Below are positions 20,804 to 27,311 of a stretch of 52,350 nt of DNA, piece by piece. The notes under the pieces were generated by a model. It was not told where the DNA came from. It did not search any database and worked only from the letters and a program-made list of their open reading frames with translations. Made by a program: the position numbers and the translations under genes. The stretch's first letter is position 1. Every line of letters starts with the position of its first letter. The DNA comes from Roseofilum halophilum BLCC-M91 (GTDB taxonomy: Bacteria; Cyanobacteriota; Cyanobacteriia; Cyanobacteriales; Desertifilaceae): positions 1 through 52,350 of the forward strand of contig NZ_JAQPOK010000096.1 in the NCBI RefSeq assembly GCF_030068445.1, written 5' to 3'.

Positions 20804-21541
20804 ATGACAAGTCACCGTTTACTGATTCTATCTTGTTCCCAGACCAAGCGATCGCAGCCCGAAGCATTACCCGCTCTTGAGCGCTATGATGGGCCAGCTT
20901 TTCGGGTAGTACGCCGTTTCTTGAGAGAACAGCCCGATCCAAGTTTAGATATCTATATCCTATCTGGGAAGTTTGGCTTGATTTCTAGTAATCAGTTAAT
21001 TCCAGATTATGACCACAAGATGAGCCAAGCGCGTGCATTAGAGTTAAATTCGTCTATTGTTACGCATTTAGAAGCGACTCTCAAGGTTCATGATTATCAA
21101 AGATTACTGATTTGCGTCACAAAAAAGTATTTTAAAGCACTTGAAAGCTACCATCAAGTCATCCCCATTTCTGTTAATGTGATCCTTGCTACTGGAACAT
21201 TGGGAAGAAAACTGTCGGTATTACGTCAGTGGCTTTATGGCGATTCCTTGCAAGTTTTAGCACCAGTTATTAATGAACAGCCTACAGATAAAATCCATTT
21301 CAAAGGAGTTGAGCTAAACTTAAGTGATGTAAATTTTTCTGAAGTTGCCCGTCAAGCTTTGGCACAAGGCAAAGGAAAACCCTATAATTATCAAACATGG
21401 TATATTTTGGTTGATAATCAGAAGATTTCTCCCAAATGGTTAGTTAGTCAATTAACCGGGTTCCCCGTAAGTTCCTTTCACTCCCAAGCTGCTCGGCGAC
21501 TTTTGCTACAACTTGGCATTCCAGTCTATTGTGATTTATGA
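20804..21541 (+). CDS. DUF6884-like protein, first gene of the transglycosylase/HerA cassette
   Basis: A 245-residue protein. Its N-terminal 150 residues show LLILSCSQTKR, then ALERYDGPAFRVVRRFL, LDIYILSGKFGLIS and PDYDHKMSQARA, the pattern of DUF6884/YaaA-like proteins. The C-terminal part (KPYNYQTWYILV...SPKWLVSQLTGFPVSSFHSQAARRLLLQLGIPVY) looks like a small separate domain, perhaps a DNA- or partner-binding module. I chose the ATG at 20804 over the TTG at 20783. The HerA gene follows after 15 bases. Biochemical function is unknown. Its position beside a transglycosylase-fold enzyme suggests a role in modified-base chemistry or sensing, by inference only. Confidence 0.75.
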   Translation: MTSHRLLILSCSQTKRSQPEALPALERYDGPAFRVVRRFLREQPDPSLDIYILSGKFGLISSNQLIPDYDHKMSQARALELNSSIVTHLEATLKVHDYQRLLICVTKKYFKALESYHQVIPISVNVILATGTLGRKLSVLRQWLYGDSLQVLAPVINEQPTDKIHFKGVELNLSDVNFSEVARQALAQGKGKPYNYQTWYILVDNQKISPKWLVSQLTGFPVSSFHSQAARRLLLQLGIPVYCDL

Positions 21542-21556
21542 AAACATGGTTTTTGT

Positions 21557-23080
21557 ATGAAGAAGAAGTCTTATCCCATAGGAACCGTCATTTCAGATAA
21601 AGAAACACCAACGTTTGAGACAGTCCGGATTAAATTAAAAGCTGGGAAAGATGTGAAACCTGGGACATTGGTGAAAATGAATGTTTCCAGAGAAGGGGAA
21701 GCAACAATTTTAATTGGACGTATCCGCAGTGGTTATGAAAGTAACCCAAATAAAAGCGTAGCTGGTGTAACAGTTAGTGATAATTTAGCTCTTCCTACCC
21801 CATCTATGCCAGAGGAACATAGTACAGATATTTATCGATTAGTTGAAGCTGACTTAATCGAGGAAATTATTGGTAAAGAAATTAGATCACCTCAAAATTT
21901 GCCGAATTCAGGTTCTGAAGTTTTTATTGCTGACTCTAGTGAAGTCGTTCGCGTTTTAGGACTCGAAACCGACAAAAAAGAAGGTTTGCATTTAGGGGAA
22001 ACTGTAGGAGGTGTTAAAACCGATATTATTCTTAAAAAATCAGCAATTCAAAGACACTTTTTTATTGGGGGAACTACTGGAAGCGGTAAAAGTTATGCAA
22101 TGGGTGTTGTTGCAGAAGAATTAATTAAACATAATTTACCAGTAATTTTCATTGATACTCAGGATGAATATTCAGAGTTTGTTAAAAAATTAAGAGGTAC
22201 TGTTAAGAGACCTGGTGAAGATTTTACTATTCGCATATCATCTTTAACTGAGAATGAACTGTTAACATTATTGCCTAGTGCAACCACTGAATTACAAAGA
22301 GATATAGCCGCTCGTGCTTTTAGCGAATTACAAGTTGAGCGATTATCTAATAATATTGCGGAATTTTCTATTGATGATTTATTAGAAAAAATGCAAATAG
22401 TCGGACCCACTTTGACTAATAAGAGAGATAGTGTAAGTATGGCTATTAGTCGAACTAGCTCTTTAAGACGTGATCCAATATTTGGTAATGGAATTAGTAA
22501 AGGGGATTGGTGTAAATTTATGAGTCCTTGTTTGGCCATTGACTGTAAGCGTTTAACTGCTTCTCAACTTCAATCAATTGCTACTGCGGTACTAAGAGAA
22601 CTTCAAATTCTACGTCTTCATAATCAAATTCCTCCTTATGTAGCAGTAGTTGATGAAGCTCATTTGTTTGTACCACAAGGAGAAAAAAGCCCTTGTAAGC
22701 AGATTATTCGAGAAGGGGTAAGGATAGGCAGACATCATGGGATTTGTATGGTGTTAATGACCCAAAGTCCTGTTGACATTGATAAAAGTGTAATTCGTCA
22801 ATGTAATACTAGATTAGTTTTTGCTCTAGAACCCGATCAATTAGATGCTATTCAAGGAGTCAAAGCAGATGCTACCGATGAAATGTTAAGAGCTTTACCC
22901 AAAATGCCACAGGGAACTTGTTTGATCTCTGGCACTTATGAAAGCCTGAAACACACAATTCCTGTCAAAATTAGACAACGGACTACTCCAGATTCTGAAG
23001 GGGGTAAAACTCCTGATATTTTCCAAGAAATGCAAGATGATTGGATTGATAAAATTACTGCGTTGAAAGAAAAGAATTAG
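21557..23080 (+). CDS. herA: HerA-type hexameric ATPase/DNA translocase (DUF87)
   Basis: A 507-residue FtsK/HerA-superfamily ATPase. An N-terminal HAS-like beta domain (about 1-150) precedes the Walker A motif GGTTGSGKS at 171-179. The Walker B motif VAVVDEAHLF is at 362-371, an Arg-finger-like RIGRHHG follows at about 389-395, and a sensor TQSP is at 402-405. HerA proteins form hexameric rings that pump or unwind DNA and work with NurA nucleases. The gene starts with ATG and ends 4 bases before the NurA-like gene. It is AT-rich and contains no HIP1 site. In bacteria, HerA ATPases recur in anti-phage systems. Confidence 0.92.
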   Translation: MKKKSYPIGTVISDKETPTFETVRIKLKAGKDVKPGTLVKMNVSREGEATILIGRIRSGYESNPNKSVAGVTVSDNLALPTPSMPEEHSTDIYRLVEADLIEEIIGKEIRSPQNLPNSGSEVFIADSSEVVRVLGLETDKKEGLHLGETVGGVKTDIILKKSAIQRHFFIGGTTGSGKSYAMGVVAEELIKHNLPVIFIDTQDEYSEFVKKLRGTVKRPGEDFTIRISSLTENELLTLLPSATTELQRDIAARAFSELQVERLSNNIAEFSIDDLLEKMQIVGPTLTNKRDSVSMAISRTSSLRRDPIFGNGISKGDWCKFMSPCLAIDCKRLTASQLQSIATAVLRELQILRLHNQIPPYVAVVDEAHLFVPQGEKSPCKQIIREGVRIGRHHGICMVLMTQSPVDIDKSVIRQCNTRLVFALEPDQLDAIQGVKADATDEMLRALPKMPQGTCLISGTYESLKHTIPVKIRQRTTPDSEGGKTPDIFQEMQDDWIDKITALKEKN

Positions 23081-23084
23081 TAAA

Positions 23085-24734
23085 ATGCCTCGCAAGAAAA
23101 AATCCAGCTATATCAACTCAAATTATATACAATTAGAAATGAATTTTGATGAGATTTTTAACCCGGACAGCTCTCAAATTTTGAATCGTGAACAAATCAA
23201 TAGTTATGATAGATTGAAAAATCACGATCCATTAGAGCAAACCCTTGAGTACATGAGCAAATTAGTTAAAGCTCAAGATCAATGGGAAACCACTATTCAA
23301 ACCGCGAGAGAACGCTTATCACAAAAAGATCCCAGAGAATTATATCTTGAGTTTTTTCAGGATTTGAGAGAACAAATTAAGCACAGTTCAAATCAATCAG
23401 AGCGGTTAGCAAATTTGCTAAAGCAAGTGGCTATTCGTGGCTTTGGAATGACGAAGGAAGAAGTTAATATTACTCCTCCTCCAAAAGGAAGCCGTCAGTG
23501 GAAAGTTGAATTAAATAAAGAATTAGTGCAACGACACCTGGAGACTCATATTGTAGGAAGATATTTTCTAAATTCGATTGAAAGTGATGATAGTTTATGG
23601 AATAACGGTGATTTTTTAATAGGATCTTCGGATGTAAGTCAGCATCGTAGTTCAGTTCCGTATCCTGCTCGTTTTTTTAATCGGACTGTACCCTTTTTAT
23701 TAAACAATGCTGCGGGTGCAATTGTTAGAGTAAGCAATGGCAAGGCTATATTTGATCAAGGTCGGTTTAATCCACAACCAACTCAAGATTTACTTCAATG
23801 GATGTTAATTGATCCATCTTACCAAGATGAATTAGAGCCAGAAGATTTTCATCGCTGTACTGCTTCAGCTATGGATGTAGGTCAATATATTTTTGATCAT
23901 GAATATTTATTGAATGCGGATAGAGATTGTCCTAATATTATCCTTAGAGATGGTAGTTTATTTCCACAAGATGCTTATTTAGATAATTATATAATTGATA
24001 ATAGACGAGGTGAATTTACTAGAAAAGCTATTAAAGAATTACTAAAATGTGTAAACTCTGCTAGAGATTTTAATAGAATTTATTGTGGAGTTTCCAAAAA
24101 TGTTCGTTTAAAAATATACAGTTCTGTTTTAGATTGGTACATTGCAAAACACATAGATACAAATTGGGAAACAGGAAATTATAGTTTAACTGATGGACAA
24201 GCAATGACATTATTGTTATCTTCTCCAGATTGTTTTGATAATGGTTTAAAAAAGGCTATATGTACTTGTTTAATTCGTAGATCATTTACAACCAGAGCAA
24301 CTTTAAATGAAAAGGCAAACTTGAAAGCATTAGATGAATCATATTTTAACCGATATCGTCAAAGAATTGACGATGAAAAAAGCGGTATTGATATAGCACC
24401 TTATAAGGATTTATGTGAAAAATTTCATACTTATACGTTTTTTATTGGACATTCTAAAAGCCCTAATAAATTATTACCTCGTTATGAATTCTTCTCGGCA
24501 AACAATAAAGATATTGAAATGATAGCTGCTCAGATATTAACAGCTATAAAATACTGTAGCTTTGCAGTTGATGAAGATCATTCTTTTATGAGCGATGAAG
24601 CTATTACTTACTTGATTCCATCTGTAACACAACAATCTCATACTTATTCTAAAGATGTCGGTAAGTGGTTAACTCAAAATGTAAAACATCAATTACTATC
24701 TAAATATCAATCTTTAATTGAAAAAATGGTATAA
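23085..24734 (+). CDS. nurA: Large divergent NurA-like nuclease
   Basis: A 549-residue protein, clearly longer than typical NurA nucleases (roughly 340-450). The assignment rests on motif order plus its place directly after herA. D-V-S at 183-185 is in a GSSDVSQHR context and would match the first NurA Asp. D-G-S at 289-291 is in IILRDGSLFP and would match the second. GVSK at 335-338 and a late His in QQSHTYSKDV correspond to the remaining motifs. The first 150 residues are a charged helical extension with no known match. NurA nucleases degrade DNA ends fed to them by HerA. The exact metal ligands need a structural comparison. Confidence 0.68.
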   Translation: MPRKKKSSYINSNYIQLEMNFDEIFNPDSSQILNREQINSYDRLKNHDPLEQTLEYMSKLVKAQDQWETTIQTARERLSQKDPRELYLEFFQDLREQIKHSSNQSERLANLLKQVAIRGFGMTKEEVNITPPPKGSRQWKVELNKELVQRHLETHIVGRYFLNSIESDDSLWNNGDFLIGSSDVSQHRSSVPYPARFFNRTVPFLLNNAAGAIVRVSNGKAIFDQGRFNPQPTQDLLQWMLIDPSYQDELEPEDFHRCTASAMDVGQYIFDHEYLLNADRDCPNIILRDGSLFPQDAYLDNYIIDNRRGEFTRKAIKELLKCVNSARDFNRIYCGVSKNVRLKIYSSVLDWYIAKHIDTNWETGNYSLTDGQAMTLLLSSPDCFDNGLKKAICTCLIRRSFTTRATLNEKANLKALDESYFNRYRQRIDDEKSGIDIAPYKDLCEKFHTYTFFIGHSKSPNKLLPRYEFFSANNKDIEMIAAQILTAIKYCSFAVDEDHSFMSDEAITYLIPSVTQQSHTYSKDVGKWLTQNVKHQLLSKYQSLIEKMV

Positions 24735-24739
24735 AAGTT

Positions 24740-25774
24740 TTGCAAATTGTAGCTGGATTTGGCTTAAAAGGCATCAAACCCCGTGTCTGGGATAAAACCT
24801 CACCCTATTACATCAAAGAGTTACAAGCAGTGATGATTTCCTATGCTGATTTTCATAAAATGCGTAGGCAAAGACAGCAAGTTATGGAAAAAGGATTACA
24901 CGAACATTTTTCCATTCCTAAAACTACAAAATTTTATCTAGATAACGGCGCATTTTCATTTATTAAAAATCATCAAGAGCTTCCCGTTGAAGAATATCGA
25001 GAATTTGTCAAAGCAGCTCATCCAGATTGGTATCCTATTCCTCAAGACTTCATCCCCATCCCTCAAATGACTTTAGAGGAACAGGAACAGTGTTTTCAAA
25101 AAACCATGAACATGAACTTTCGGCACTATCAAGGTAAGTATGTCCCTGTTGTTCATATTAGCCAATTCTTAGAACAATATATTGAAAAAATTCTCAGTAG
25201 TAAAGCTCTAAGAAATAAAACAGACATTGCTTTAGGTGGAATAGTCCCCAACTTGCTCCGCGCTCCCAAAGCCATATCTCATGAAAAAATAATTCATGGT
25301 TTAGTTAGCTTCCGGCAACAATTTAAGGATAAAAAACTGCATGTTTTTGGTATTGGAGGCACTTCAACCTTACATATTGCTGCTTTACTGGGGATTAATT
25401 CGGTTGATTCTAGTGGATGGCGTAACCGTGCAGCTAGAGGTTTAATCCAACTTCCAGGAACGGGCGATCGCATTGTAGCACAGCTAGGGAACTGGAGGGG
25501 TCGATATTTGAGTCAAGAAGAAGAAGAAAAACTAAAAACTTGTCAATGTCCCGCTTGTCAACAATATGGCTTAGAAGGATTAAGAGCCAGTGGAGGCTAT
25601 GGATTTTATAATCGAGCCACTCATAACCTATGGGTACTCCTAGAAGAAGCCAGACAAATTGAAGAGCATCTGAATATTATTGGCGATTATAAAACTTGGT
25701 ATTTAGAGCATCTGGATAATACGATTTATCGTCCATTAATTCAAAAGCTGCTCAAGGAAGTGAGAATTGATTAA
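24740..25774 (+). CDS. TGT-fold base transglycosylase, possibly DpdA-like (DNA guanine exchange)
   Basis: A compact 344-residue protein with the tRNA-guanine transglycosylase fold. The first catalytic Asp lies in YLDNGAF (D68; tRNA enzymes have DSGGF). The substrate pocket Gly-Gly is at ALGGIVPN (166-167). The nucleophile Asp lies in SVDSSGWRNRAARG (D223), matching the family's FDCVxPTRxAR block. Zinc ligands are C268, C270, C273 and H295 (CQCPAC...THNL). It begins with TTG, 5 bases after the nuclease gene. Bacterial tRNA TGTs are longer and act in queuosine synthesis. The loops here differ, and the neighbours are DNA enzymes, which favours DpdA-type insertion of a 7-deazaguanine into DNA. 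A tRNA substrate is not excluded. Confidence 0.8.
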   Translation: MQIVAGFGLKGIKPRVWDKTSPYYIKELQAVMISYADFHKMRRQRQQVMEKGLHEHFSIPKTTKFYLDNGAFSFIKNHQELPVEEYREFVKAAHPDWYPIPQDFIPIPQMTLEEQEQCFQKTMNMNFRHYQGKYVPVVHISQFLEQYIEKILSSKALRNKTDIALGGIVPNLLRAPKAISHEKIIHGLVSFRQQFKDKKLHVFGIGGTSTLHIAALLGINSVDSSGWRNRAARGLIQLPGTGDRIVAQLGNWRGRYLSQEEEEKLKTCQCPACQQYGLEGLRASGGYGFYNRATHNLWVLLEEARQIEEHLNIIGDYKTWYLEHLDNTIYRPLIQKLLKEVRID

Positions 25775-25890: not shown

Positions 25891-26613
25891 ATGACCGCAA
25901 CCCTAGTATCGAATACCCAACCCACAACAGAAGAAGAAATTCTCTTCCCTCCTGGTAACCTTTATAGTGATGAACCTCCCGTGGAAAGTGAACTGCATCT
26001 GAGACAAATTATCCTCTTGATTCAATGCTTAGAGAGGCTCTGGCGCGATCGCCAAGATTTCTATGCAGCCGGTAATCTCACCATCTACTATAGTCCCCGA
26101 CAACTTAAATCAGAAGACTTTCGCGGCCCCGATTTCTTCGTTGTCCTGGGAACAGAGCGCAAACCCCGCAAAAGTTGGACGGTTTGGCACGAAAATGGAA
26201 AATATCCCGACGTGATTGTGGAAATTTTATCCAAAAACACGGCATCGGTAGATCGGGGATTGAAAAAACAGATTTATGAAAATACGTTTAGGACGGCGGA
26301 ATATTTCTGGTTTGACCCCGATACTTTAGAGTTTGAAGGATTCGTTATGGTTGGGGGTCAATATCAGGCGATCGCTCCCAACCCGTCGGGATACTTATGG
26401 AGTCAAGAACTCGGATTGTATTTAGGAAGGAGCGATCGCCAATTACGCTTTTTCACAGCCAATGGCGATTTGGTTTTGACACCCAATGAAATCGCCGACC
26501 GAGAAGCTCAACGAGCTGAGACAGAAGCTCAACGAGCCGATACGGAAGCTCAACGAGCAGCTCGCCTAGCGGCTAAACTTAGAGAACTGAACATCGATCC
26601 CGATACGCTCTAA
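25891..26613 (+). CDS. Uma2 family (DUF820) putative endonuclease, copy 1 of tandem pair
   Basis: A 240-residue Uma2 protein. The nuclease-like residues sit in GPDFFVVLG (Asp) and YPDVIVEILS (Glu), followed by a Lys-rich helix (LKKQIYEN). The C-terminal 40 residues form a charged repeat, TEAQRAD in two to three copies, ending in LAAKLRELNIDPD. It is about 75% identical by eye to the next gene, and both have CCTCTATTTTTT just upstream, so they arose by tandem duplication. It follows the transglycosylase gene by 116 bases. There is no evidence that it belongs to that cassette. Confidence 0.88.
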   Translation: MTATLVSNTQPTTEEEILFPPGNLYSDEPPVESELHLRQIILLIQCLERLWRDRQDFYAAGNLTIYYSPRQLKSEDFRGPDFFVVLGTERKPRKSWTVWHENGKYPDVIVEILSKNTASVDRGLKKQIYENTFRTAEYFWFDPDTLEFEGFVMVGGQYQAIAPNPSGYLWSQELGLYLGRSDRQLRFFTANGDLVLTPNEIADREAQRAETEAQRADTEAQRAARLAAKLRELNIDPDTL

Positions 26614-26630
26614 TTCCTCTATTTTTTGTC

Positions 26631-27311
26631 ATGACTGCTTTATCCAACCTCTTCTCCAATACCGAATCGGAAGAAGAAATTATCTTCCCCCCTGGTGACC
26701 TTTATAGCAATGAACCTCCCATGGACAGCGACCTGCATCTAAAACAAGTTATCCTCTTAATTCAATCTTTAGAAAGACATTGGCGCGATCGCCAAGATTT
26801 CTACGTTGCGGGTAATCTCTCGGTCTACTATAGTCGCCAACAAATCGAATCAGGAGACTGGCGCAGCCCGGATTTCTTTGTTGCCCTGAAAACGGAGAGA
26901 AAACCGCGCAAAAGTTGGGTAGTTTGGCAGGAAGATGGTAACTATCCCCATGTGATTGTGGAAATCTTCTCCCAGAACACTCCACCAGCCGATCGCCAAG
27001 TGAAAAAAGAGCTTTACCAAAAGATTTTTAGAGCGCCACAATATTTCTGGTTTGACCTAGAAACGCTAGAGTTACAGGGTTTTATATTCAATGGTGGTGA
27101 CTATGCAGAGATCCCTGCCAATGAGTCGGGATACTTGTGGAGCGAGCAATTGGGATTATATTTGGGGAGGCGCGATCGCCAACTCCGTTTCTTCACCGCC
27201 GAAGGTGAGTTGGTTTTGACACCGGAAGAAGTAGCCGATCGCGAAACTCAACGAGCCGATCGCCTAGCGGCTAAACTGCGCGAACTCAACATTGACCCCG
27301 ATAGCATTTAA
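26631..27311 (+). CDS. Uma2 family (DUF820) putative endonuclease, copy 2 of tandem pair
   Basis: A 226-residue paralogue of the preceding gene. The same motifs are present (SPDFFVALK, YPHVIVEIFS), with the first Gly of GPD changed to Ser and the PD before VIVE changed to PH. The C-terminal charged repeat is shorter, with one ETQRAD unit. It starts 17 bases after copy 1 and shares its leader. The change at PDVIVE could weaken activity, or may be neutral. Confidence 0.87.
   Translation: MTALSNLFSNTESEEEIIFPPGDLYSNEPPMDSDLHLKQVILLIQSLERHWRDRQDFYVAGNLSVYYSRQQIESGDWRSPDFFVALKTERKPRKSWVVWQEDGNYPHVIVEIFSQNTPPADRQVKKELYQKIFRAPQYFWFDLETLELQGFIFNGGDYAEIPANESGYLWSEQLGLYLGRRDRQLRFFTAEGELVLTPEEVADRETQRADRLAAKLRELNIDPDSI

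What the first reader, a model, noticed from the sequence alone, without database searches (positions are those of the whole stretch)
20804..25774. Four-gene DUF6884 / HerA / NurA-like / TGT-fold cassette: candidate 7-deazaguanine DNA modification or anti-phage system
Seen: four same-strand genes with gaps of 15, 4 and 5 bases; a HerA ATPase with full Walker motifs; a NurA-like protein; and a transglycosylase with both catalytic Asp and zinc ligands. Known: TGT-fold DpdA enzymes insert preQ0 into DNA in bacteria and phages, and HerA ATPases with nucleases act in several anti-phage systems. Inference: a base-exchange enzyme joined to a HerA/NurA pair would make a modification-and-cleavage system. 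The known Dpd cluster, as I recall it, has no HerA/NurA pair, so this combination may be new. DUF6884 could provide substrate or sense modified DNA.
Basis: partly seen in the sequence, partly recalled or inferred. Interest (0 to 1): 0.88.

Follow-up and report, generated by a model that had tools for sequence, protein, structure and literature searches.

The report
DNA-base-exchange cassette with swappable nuclease
A four-gene cassette in a cyanobacterium pairs an enzyme predicted to swap a modified guanine into DNA with a DNA pump and a probable nuclease, and related bacteria carry the same outer genes around different pump-nuclease pairs, so it looks like a small self-marking DNA defence system that still has to be tested.

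Summary
In detail: DUF6884, HerA, NurA-like and TGT-fold genes lie head to tail at 20804-25774. A TGT-keyed survey gave 24 distinct records in Cyanobacteriota, Chloroflexota and one phage contig; of 21 informative ones, 18 hold all four slots, one has another inner module, two are decayed. New: the outer genes (DUF6884 first, TGT last) are constant while the inner pair is exchangeable: type A (HerA, NurA-like; here) or type B (NurA, a distant HerA). In a sister species the exchange at the same site runs from the DUF6884 stop codon to the TGT start. A plasmid shows a third module (Mre11/Rad50-like). The TGT keeps catalytic and zinc residues and groups with viral DpdA-type enzymes, not tRNA Tgt. 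Five of six cassette Chloroflexota lack QueC (as do 12 of 16 cassette-free ones), yet four of five with upstream sequence have a YhhQ-family transporter gene beside the cassette. One phage contig carries the TGT without the other three. Best reading: a DpdB-less 7-deazaguanine restriction-modification-like system with plug-in HerA/NurA effectors. No modified base, nuclease activity or phage protection has been measured.

The parts
20804..21541 (+). Outer gene 1: DUF6884 protein (YaaA/DUF328-like fold), CxxxK and LSxxxG motifs
   Evidence: Pfam DUF6884 1.9e-14; PADLOC PDC-M57A 8e-10 and DpdC 3.4e-4; AF2 pLDDT 84; VIA-align Z 10.4 to YaaA 5caj and 10.5 to AF0587 2q07, next row 6.8; C11, K15, L53, S54, G58 invariant in 9 of 9
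21557..23080 (+). Inner gene 1 (type A): HerA-family DNA translocase
   Evidence: Pfam DUF87 3.5e-23; Walker A GTTGSGKS
23085..24734 (+). Inner gene 2 (type A): NurA-like probable nuclease
   Evidence: Pfam NurA 4.7e-4, 20.2 bits vs cut-off 21; DVS (D183) and RDGSL (D289) invariant in 7 of 7; slot filled by a NurA over the cut-off in type B cassettes
24740..25774 (+). Outer gene 2: DpdA-like TGT-fold base-exchange enzyme
   Evidence: Pfam TGT 2.4e-6; PHROG 887 1.5e-14; catalytic and zinc residues conserved; groups with STSV1 and phage 9g enzymes, not Tgt
21540..21541 (.). Upstream edge of the exchanged inner module (DUF6884 stop codon)
   Evidence: blastn homology to sister species G414 stops at 21539; raw sequences compared
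24724..24740 (.). Downstream edge of the exchanged inner module (just before the TGT start)
   Evidence: homology to G414 resumes at 24724; raw sequences compared

Best explanation
A compact, DpdB-less 7-deazaguanine restriction-modification-like system. The TGT-fold enzyme exchanges guanine in host DNA for preQ0 or a related 7-deazaguanine, by the double-displacement chemistry of TGT enzymes (D223 as nucleophile, D68, zinc site; residue roles recalled). The DUF6884 protein acts on or reads that base: either a DpdC/ArcS-like conversion of the nitrile, or a base-flipping check. The inner HerA-NurA pair is the restriction arm: HerA pumps DNA that lacks the mark into the nuclease. Because recognition sits in the outer pair, the inner pair can be replaced by another translocase-nuclease pair. 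Shown by sequence: gene content, linkage, residue conservation, exchange of inner modules, transporter linkage, placement of the TGT. Inferred: DNA as target, identity of the base, self/non-self discrimination, nuclease activity, defence.
For: (1) Linkage: 18 of 21 informative records hold all four slots. (2) The TGT keeps active-site and zinc residues and groups with viral enzymes (STSV1, phage 9g DpdA) at 99/98, apart from five bacterial Tgts and an archaeal arcTGT fragment; 8 of 8 hosts tested also have an ordinary Tgt. (3) Substrate: a Vut_1 (YhhQ-family; equation recalled) gene lies beside the cassette in 4 of the 5 Chloroflexota with upstream sequence (46, 63, about 225 and 823 bases away), against Vut_1 anywhere in 3 of 16 cassette-free Chloroflexota; those four genomes lack QueC. 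(4) Full-length QueC in 12 of 13 distinct cyanobacterial hosts tested. (5) DUF6884 has the YaaA/DUF328 fold; print assigns DpdC to DUF328 (PMC12839542 passage) and lists DUF6884 as a DpdC domain (PMC11888242 passage). (6) Module exchange at ORF edges and interleaved A/B labels on the TGT and DUF6884 trees, at least 4 changes forced by well-supported branches. (7) A phage contig (major head protein, terminase) carries a full-length TGT without the other three genes, behind a 22-residue relic of type B HerA, as when phages keep only a modification gene. (8) The type C module has capP-like and LmuB-like (Lamassu) matches.
Against: No modified base, nuclease activity or phage phenotype has been measured. 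The TGT scores 33.4 bits against the DpdA equivalog cut-off of 200. QueC is also in 3 of 3 cassette-less congeners, and lack of QueC is common in Chloroflexota without the cassette (12 of 16), so QueC alone says little either way. G118 has a contig-edge TGT but no full-length QueC. G556 has neither QueC nor Vut_1; a DUF366 gene stands upstream. One of the four transporter-linked cassettes (G877) is decayed. A PADLOC scan of 71 hand-picked flanking proteins gave no clear defence island (no null was run). The phage capture and type C are single cases. Long branches make the deep TGT tree uncertain, and the bootstrap of the cassette TGT tree had not settled.
Confidence: 0.6

Rival explanations
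1. Modification-targeting defence: the TGT acts on phage DNA that carries 7-deazaguanine, removing or exchanging the base; DUF6884 senses the lesion or abasic site; HerA-NurA degrades that DNA. Host DNA is not marked.
For: DUF6884 relative YfjM is reported to interact with abasic and RNA-base lesions (PMC11701544 passage); 5 of 6 cassette Chloroflexota lack QueC; low frequency fits a niche target.
Against: The YhhQ-family transporter gene beside the cassette would supply free base, which a base remover does not need; a phage carrying the TGT without the other genes would gain nothing.
Confidence: 0.15
2. DNA repair: HerA-NurA resects ends as in archaea, and the outer genes handle damaged guanines.
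For: HerA-NurA is an end-resection pair in archaea (PMC12977600, start of abstract in listing); type C contains Mre11/Rad50-like proteins.
Against: Rare and patchy (5 of 386, 9 of 243, 8 of 388, 6 of 400 genomes), present in 3 of the 6 genomes of the genus, own included, decayed in two genomes, inner genes repeatedly exchanged.
Confidence: 0.08
3. RNA target: the TGT modifies an RNA, and the neighbours serve translation or RNA control.
For: TGT-fold enzymes mostly act on tRNA (recalled); best PDB sequence match is archaeosine TGT 1iq8.
Against: The partners are a DNA translocase and a NurA-type protein in 18 of 18 intact cassettes; an ordinary Tgt is encoded elsewhere in 8 of 8 hosts tested; grouping with viral enzymes.
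Confidence: 0.05
4. A 7-deazaguanine DNA-marking system whose inner genes maintain an element or block competing elements, with no anti-phage role.
For: Type C lies on a 40-kb plasmid typed as mobilizable; one TGT on a phage contig.
Against: In the window and in G414 the cassette sits between an M20 peptidase gene and gpsA, not on an evident mobile element; the surroundings of the other cassettes were not classified.
Confidence: 0.08

Closest known systems
Dpd islands (dpdA-K; Salmonella Montevideo type)
   Same: TGT-fold enzyme plus a DUF6884/DUF328-fold protein plus DNA-processing genes; preQ0 as likely base
   Different: No DpdB in the cassette and no DndB-family gene in 10 of 20 hosts; TGT far below the DpdA equivalog cut-off; restriction arm is HerA-NurA instead of dpdD-K; four genes, against up to eleven (PMC11888242 passage)
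BREX-related capture (BRC) systems, PMC12839542 (passages read)
   Same: HerA/FtsK translocase and TGT in one locus, proposed 7-deazaguanine marking
   Different: BRC is described with PglZ, DUF6079, STAND-NTPase and DUF4007, TGT only in a subset; the authors found no DpdB or DpdC homolog; the word NurA does not occur in that paper. Here there is a NurA-type partner, a DUF6884 protein and no BREX part among the four genes
Phage DpdA modification (e.g. Enterobacteria phage 9g; PMC6884629 passages)
   Same: TGT-fold enzyme in a genome region without DpdB among its annotated neighbours; nearest group on the tree together with STSV1
   Different: Phage versions protect the phage; here the gene sits in a host cassette with translocase and nuclease
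Dnd/Ssp phosphorothioation with alternative restriction modules (DndFGH, PbeABCD, SspE; starts of abstracts in listing)
   Same: One modification module paired with different restriction modules
   Different: Other chemistry; here the exchange is seen at ORF edges inside one four-gene cassette
Archaeal HerA-NurA end-resection pair
   Same: Translocase and nuclease families
   Different: Bacterial, inside a base-exchange cassette; the type A NurA-like protein is highly diverged

Membership tests
Dpd system | DpdA by NCBIfam equivalog cut-off (200 bits) | tested here: not met
   33.4 bits; PADLOC DpdA 2.9e-10 shows relatedness only
Dpd system | DpdB (DndB-family ATPase) linked to dpdA | tested here: not met
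   No such gene among the four. PF14072 absent in 10 of 20 hosts; in the other 10 it lies on another contig or over 1 Mb away, except that for G549 I did not establish the cassette's contig number
Dpd system | DpdC (DUF328/YaaA-type nitrile-converting protein) | tested here: inconclusive
   PADLOC DpdC 3.4e-4; YaaA fold Z 10.4; activity not testable
Dpd system | restriction genes dpdD-K | tested here: not met
   None of the four proteins matches these in PADLOC at E 1; the rest of the genome was not searched for them
Dpd system | dPreQ0 or dADG in genomic DNA | not testable with these tools
   needs LC-MS
BRC system | PglZ, DUF6079, STAND-NTPase, DUF4007 with HerA and TGT | tested here: not met
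   The four proteins have no such Pfam match over the cut-off; flanks were not searched model by model
tRNA Tgt (queuosine) | groups with bacterial Tgt | tested here: not met
   Eight cassette rows separate from five Tgts (99/98; Tgts 100/100), long branches warned of
HerA family | HerA central domain with Walker A and B | tested here: met
   Pfam 83.3 bits; Walker A GTTGSGKS, Walker B read in translation
NurA family (type A protein of this window) | Pfam NurA gathering score | tested here: inconclusive
   20.2 bits vs cut-off 21; L036 19.7 bits, L025 and L068 no match at E 0.05; L008 13.8 bits
NurA family (type B protein) | Pfam NurA gathering score | tested here: met
   31.0-40.8 bits in 4 of 4, 32.7 bits in L070; the other type B proteins were not scanned against Pfam
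DUF6884 | Pfam gathering score and CxxxK, LSAxxG motifs | tested here: met
   54.4 bits; C11, K15, L53, S54, G58 invariant in 9 of 9; the window reads LSGKFG, so the A of the second motif is not kept

The most novel reading that the evidence does not exclude
A previously undescribed family of minimal 7-deazaguanine restriction-modification systems in Cyanobacteriota and Chloroflexota, in which a constant recognition/modification pair (DUF6884 + DpdA-like TGT) brackets an exchangeable effector slot. Two unlike HerA/NurA pairs and an Mre11/Rad50-like set have been plugged into that slot, by recombination that cuts at the ends of the outer genes. Phages can take the modification enzyme alone.
Probability: 0.5. 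Interest if true: 0.85.

Novelty: new variant of a known kind. Interest (0 to 1): 0.76.

Why it matters
It would reduce a Dpd-type DNA marking and restriction system from up to eleven genes to four, make it small enough to move into a model host as one operon, and give a natural set of effector swaps with which to ask how a DNA mark is read by a DNA pump and nuclease. It also names DUF6884 and an unusual NurA-like family as testable parts of 7-deazaguanine biology in cyanobacteria.

Tried and rejected
AlphaFold of the type A NurA-like protein (alignment A2, 4 rows) failed with pLDDT 38.6, so no fold search was made with it. Profile-profile comparison of type A and type B NurA found nothing, so I do not claim they are homologous beyond the Pfam matches. 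PDB sequence searches with the DUF6884 alignment (no match) and both NurA alignments (only chance-level matches to unrelated chains, best E 0.027) found no relative.

Ordinary tRNA-Q enzyme: rejected. Defence island: scanning 71 hand-picked flanking proteins from 11 other loci (not every ORF; the window's own flanks left out) gave PDC-S03 in up to 6 of 71, and PD-T4-6, mad6, MkoA and C3a189 in 2 of 71 each, only 25 of 54 families being shown. Without a null this is not evidence for or against.

Empty site in congeners: the M20 gene is found in G426, G437 and G448, but its neighbours differ, so no clean empty site could be defined.

Viral scans: the TGT alignment gave one contig; L007 TGT and both NurA alignments gave none. 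The window TGT matched 5 phage records, all Sulfolobus viruses at about 25% identity. Plasmid searches with both NurA types gave none.

Dropped before counts: records that I take for one genome by equal contig lengths or coordinates (L003=L027, L008=L024, L006=L033, L007=L067, L005=L066) count once in the 24. G118 and L066 (contig edges) and phage contig L017 are outside the 21. The cassette TGT tree has 17 of the 24; L026, L063, L064, L065, L068, L069 and L070 were left out. L005 and L017 were labelled B from partial HerA. The 16 cassette-free Chloroflexota were taken from the top of the list, not drawn at random. QueC was not tested in G987, G1081 and G1096.

Mended on re-reading: the HerA relic matches at 20 of 22 positions (my notebook wrote 21), and the base rate of QueC absence was added.
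Full report
What is there. Four same-strand genes occupy window 20804-25774 with gaps of 15, 4 and 5 bases: a 245-aa DUF6884 protein, a 507-aa HerA translocase, a 549-aa protein with a borderline NurA match (20.2 bits, cut-off 21) and a 344-aa TGT-fold protein. Upstream is a divergent M20 peptidase gene, downstream are two Uma2 genes and gpsA (M20 and gpsA named through the G414 orthologues). G+C of the four genes is 0.321-0.407, against 0.457 for the window and 0.455-0.532 for the seven neighbours measured.

Conservation. Searches keyed on the TGT (alignment A1) found matches in 5 of 386 genomes of the phylum sample (E 1e-60), 9 of 243 of the order (E 1e-20), 8 of 388 of the class (E 1e-15) and 6 of 400 Chloroflexota (E 1e-15; one of them, G877, only a fragment) (the cyanobacterial samples overlap). 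One scan of genome contigs gave 9 loci, viral contigs one, plasmids one close match among 8 records. After merging duplicates there are 24 records. A uniform six-frame profile scan shows 7 intact type A cassettes, 11 type B (one, L064, with a short divergent DUF6884), one type C (plasmid), two decayed (L037, L065), two cut by contig edges (L066, L026) and one phage contig with the TGT without the others (L017). So 18 of 21 informative records hold all four slots with DUF6884 first and TGT last.

The inner pair is a module. Type A is HerA then NurA-like; type B is NurA (31.0-40.8 bits in the five scanned, over the cut-off) then a different HerA (21-25% identical to type A HerA over two stretches). 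In the window's genus, G213 is type A and G414 type B. Against G414, homology to the window runs through the M20 gene and DUF6884 to 21539, stops, and resumes at 24724 in front of the TGT; it then continues, with the Uma2 genes reduced to a remnant, to gpsA. The raw sequence shows the change at the DUF6884 stop codon. DUF6884 and TGT are 87.5% and 93.5% identical in DNA between window and G414. Between the window and G213 the four genes are 88.6, 93.4, 99.3 and 92.8% identical, so the NurA-like gene may itself have moved recently (inference). On trees of the TGT (17 cassette rows) and DUF6884 (14 rows), A and B labels interleave: well-supported branches force at least four changes of either label, and the labels are no more clustered than shuffles; the bootstrap of the TGT tree had not settled. 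Three of the six genomes of the genus, own included, have the cassette. On Aulosira laxa plasmid6 (L021) the outer genes bracket seven genes on the same strand: a sigma-like protein and an unknown (both under Pfam cut-offs), an M78 peptidase (capP-like), an unknown, a HerA-like protein under the cut-off, an Mre11-like phosphoesterase and an SbcC/Rad50-like protein with LmuB matches. This is a single case.

The base-exchange enzyme. Catalytic D68 and D223 and the zinc ligands C268, C270, C273, H295 are invariant in 10 of 10 cassette proteins; the role of each residue is recalled from TGT enzymology. PDB sequence relatives are archaeosine TGT 1iq8 and DNA-guanine transglycosylase 7ui4. In a 21-row tree the eight cassette proteins used group with STSV1 and phage 9g DpdA at 99/98, away from five bacterial Tgts and an arcTGT fragment, with a warning about long branches. 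Each of 8 hosts tested has a separate Tgt.

Substrate. Full-length QueC is present in 12 of 13 distinct cyanobacterial hosts tested, the exception being G118, whose TGT is cut by a contig edge; it is also in 3 of 3 cassette-less congeners, so this is weak. In Chloroflexota 5 of 6 cassette genomes lack QueC, but so do 12 of 16 cassette-free ones. What is telling is the transporter: a Vut_1 (PF02592) gene lies directly upstream of DUF6884 in G555, G753 and G877 and 823 bases upstream in G554, with one or two small ORFs between (in one search the overlapping ORF chosen for G877 had no match, the Vut_1 frame being another one, and that cassette is decayed). That PF02592 covers YhhQ is recalled; YhhQ is described as the preQ0 transporter in PMC6884629 (passages). 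G556 has a DUF366 gene there and no Vut_1; G572 has QueC, and its contig ends before the place. Vut_1 occurs anywhere in 3 of 16 cassette-free Chloroflexota. More distant haloarchaeal relatives of the TGT (22-25% identity) lie near preQ0 synthesis or transport genes in three of the five plasmid stretches read (not in 33 or 124), and a Haladaptatus plasmid has DUF6884 next to a TGT and an ATPase.

DUF6884. The model (pLDDT 84) matches E. coli YaaA (DUF328) and AF0587 at Z 10.4 and 10.5, well above the next row at 6.8. PMC12839542 names DpdC as DUF328, and PMC11888242 lists DUF6884 as a DpdC domain (passages). PMC11701544 describes the two motifs and suggests a DNA-lesion role for relative YfjM (passage). 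That AF0587 belongs to the archaeosine-synthase family is recalled, not tested.

Phage capture. Contig L017 carries a major head protein and a terminase and a full-length TGT right after a 22-residue stretch that matches type B HerA of L007 at 20 of 22 positions (in L007 the stretch lies well inside HerA, residues about 499-520 of 629). A phage that kept only this gene from a host cassette fits a protective, self-marking role for the TGT (inference, one case).

Mechanism proposed. The TGT marks host DNA with a 7-deazaguanine; DUF6884 converts or reads it; HerA-NurA destroys unmarked DNA. Gene content, linkage, exchange and transporter linkage are shown; target, mark, discrimination, nuclease activity and defence are inferred. 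Rivals are listed with their tests.

Known or new. In the held library, no paper holds DpdA with HerA and NurA; NurA with transglycosylase gives one paper, on a mycobacterial plasmid by its title; HerA with 7-deazaguanine gives 16 papers, of which I opened only PMC12839542 on BRC systems; tRNA-guanine transglycosylase with HerA and defense gives that paper alone; DUF6884 gives two papers. A word search of PMC10853773, on related HerA capture systems, finds none of NurA, TGT, DpdA, transglycosylase, 7-deaza, YaaA. Most subscription papers are not in the library. The cassette fails the DpdA equivalog cut-off and lacks DpdB, so it is not filed as a Dpd island; it works most like one.

Noticed in passing
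window 25891-27311: Two tandem Uma2-family genes follow the cassette; both are in G213, and a remnant is in G414 at the same site.
   Followed up: partly
G000:C88:42344-45960: Three DndB-family matches within 3.6 kb in the window's own genome, on another contig, perhaps a phosphorothioation-type locus.
   Followed up: no
L018, L019, L020, L022, L078: Haloarchaeal plasmids carry a repeated set: a large TGT-annotated protein (734-968 aa), a 344-aa TGT, a 298-299-aa unknown and a BREX-type ATPase, in three of five with preQ0 synthesis genes or a queuosine-precursor transporter.
   Followed up: partly
L072:6384-10256: Haladaptatus plasmid with a PLD-like gene, DUF6884, TGT and ATPase in a row beside large helicases.
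   Followed up: partly
L011:3-671: DUF366 gene (PDB 2ddz, hypothetical protein) in the place where other Chloroflexota cassettes have a YhhQ-family transporter; a link of DUF366 to 7-deazaguanine supply is possible.
   Followed up: no
G555:C30:71296-72375 and G556:C266:27974-29053: A second, more divergent Tgt paralogue (313-323 bits) in two Chloroflexota genomes; the G555 copy groups with Tgt.
   Followed up: partly
L037:7209-10658: Decayed type A cassette: DUF6884 and HerA reduced to fragments and a stop in the TGT frame.
   Followed up: partly
L017:2746-3477: The phage contig with the captured TGT also carries a PAPS-reductase-like gene and repeated copies of an unknown family, PHROG 34599.
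   Followed up: no
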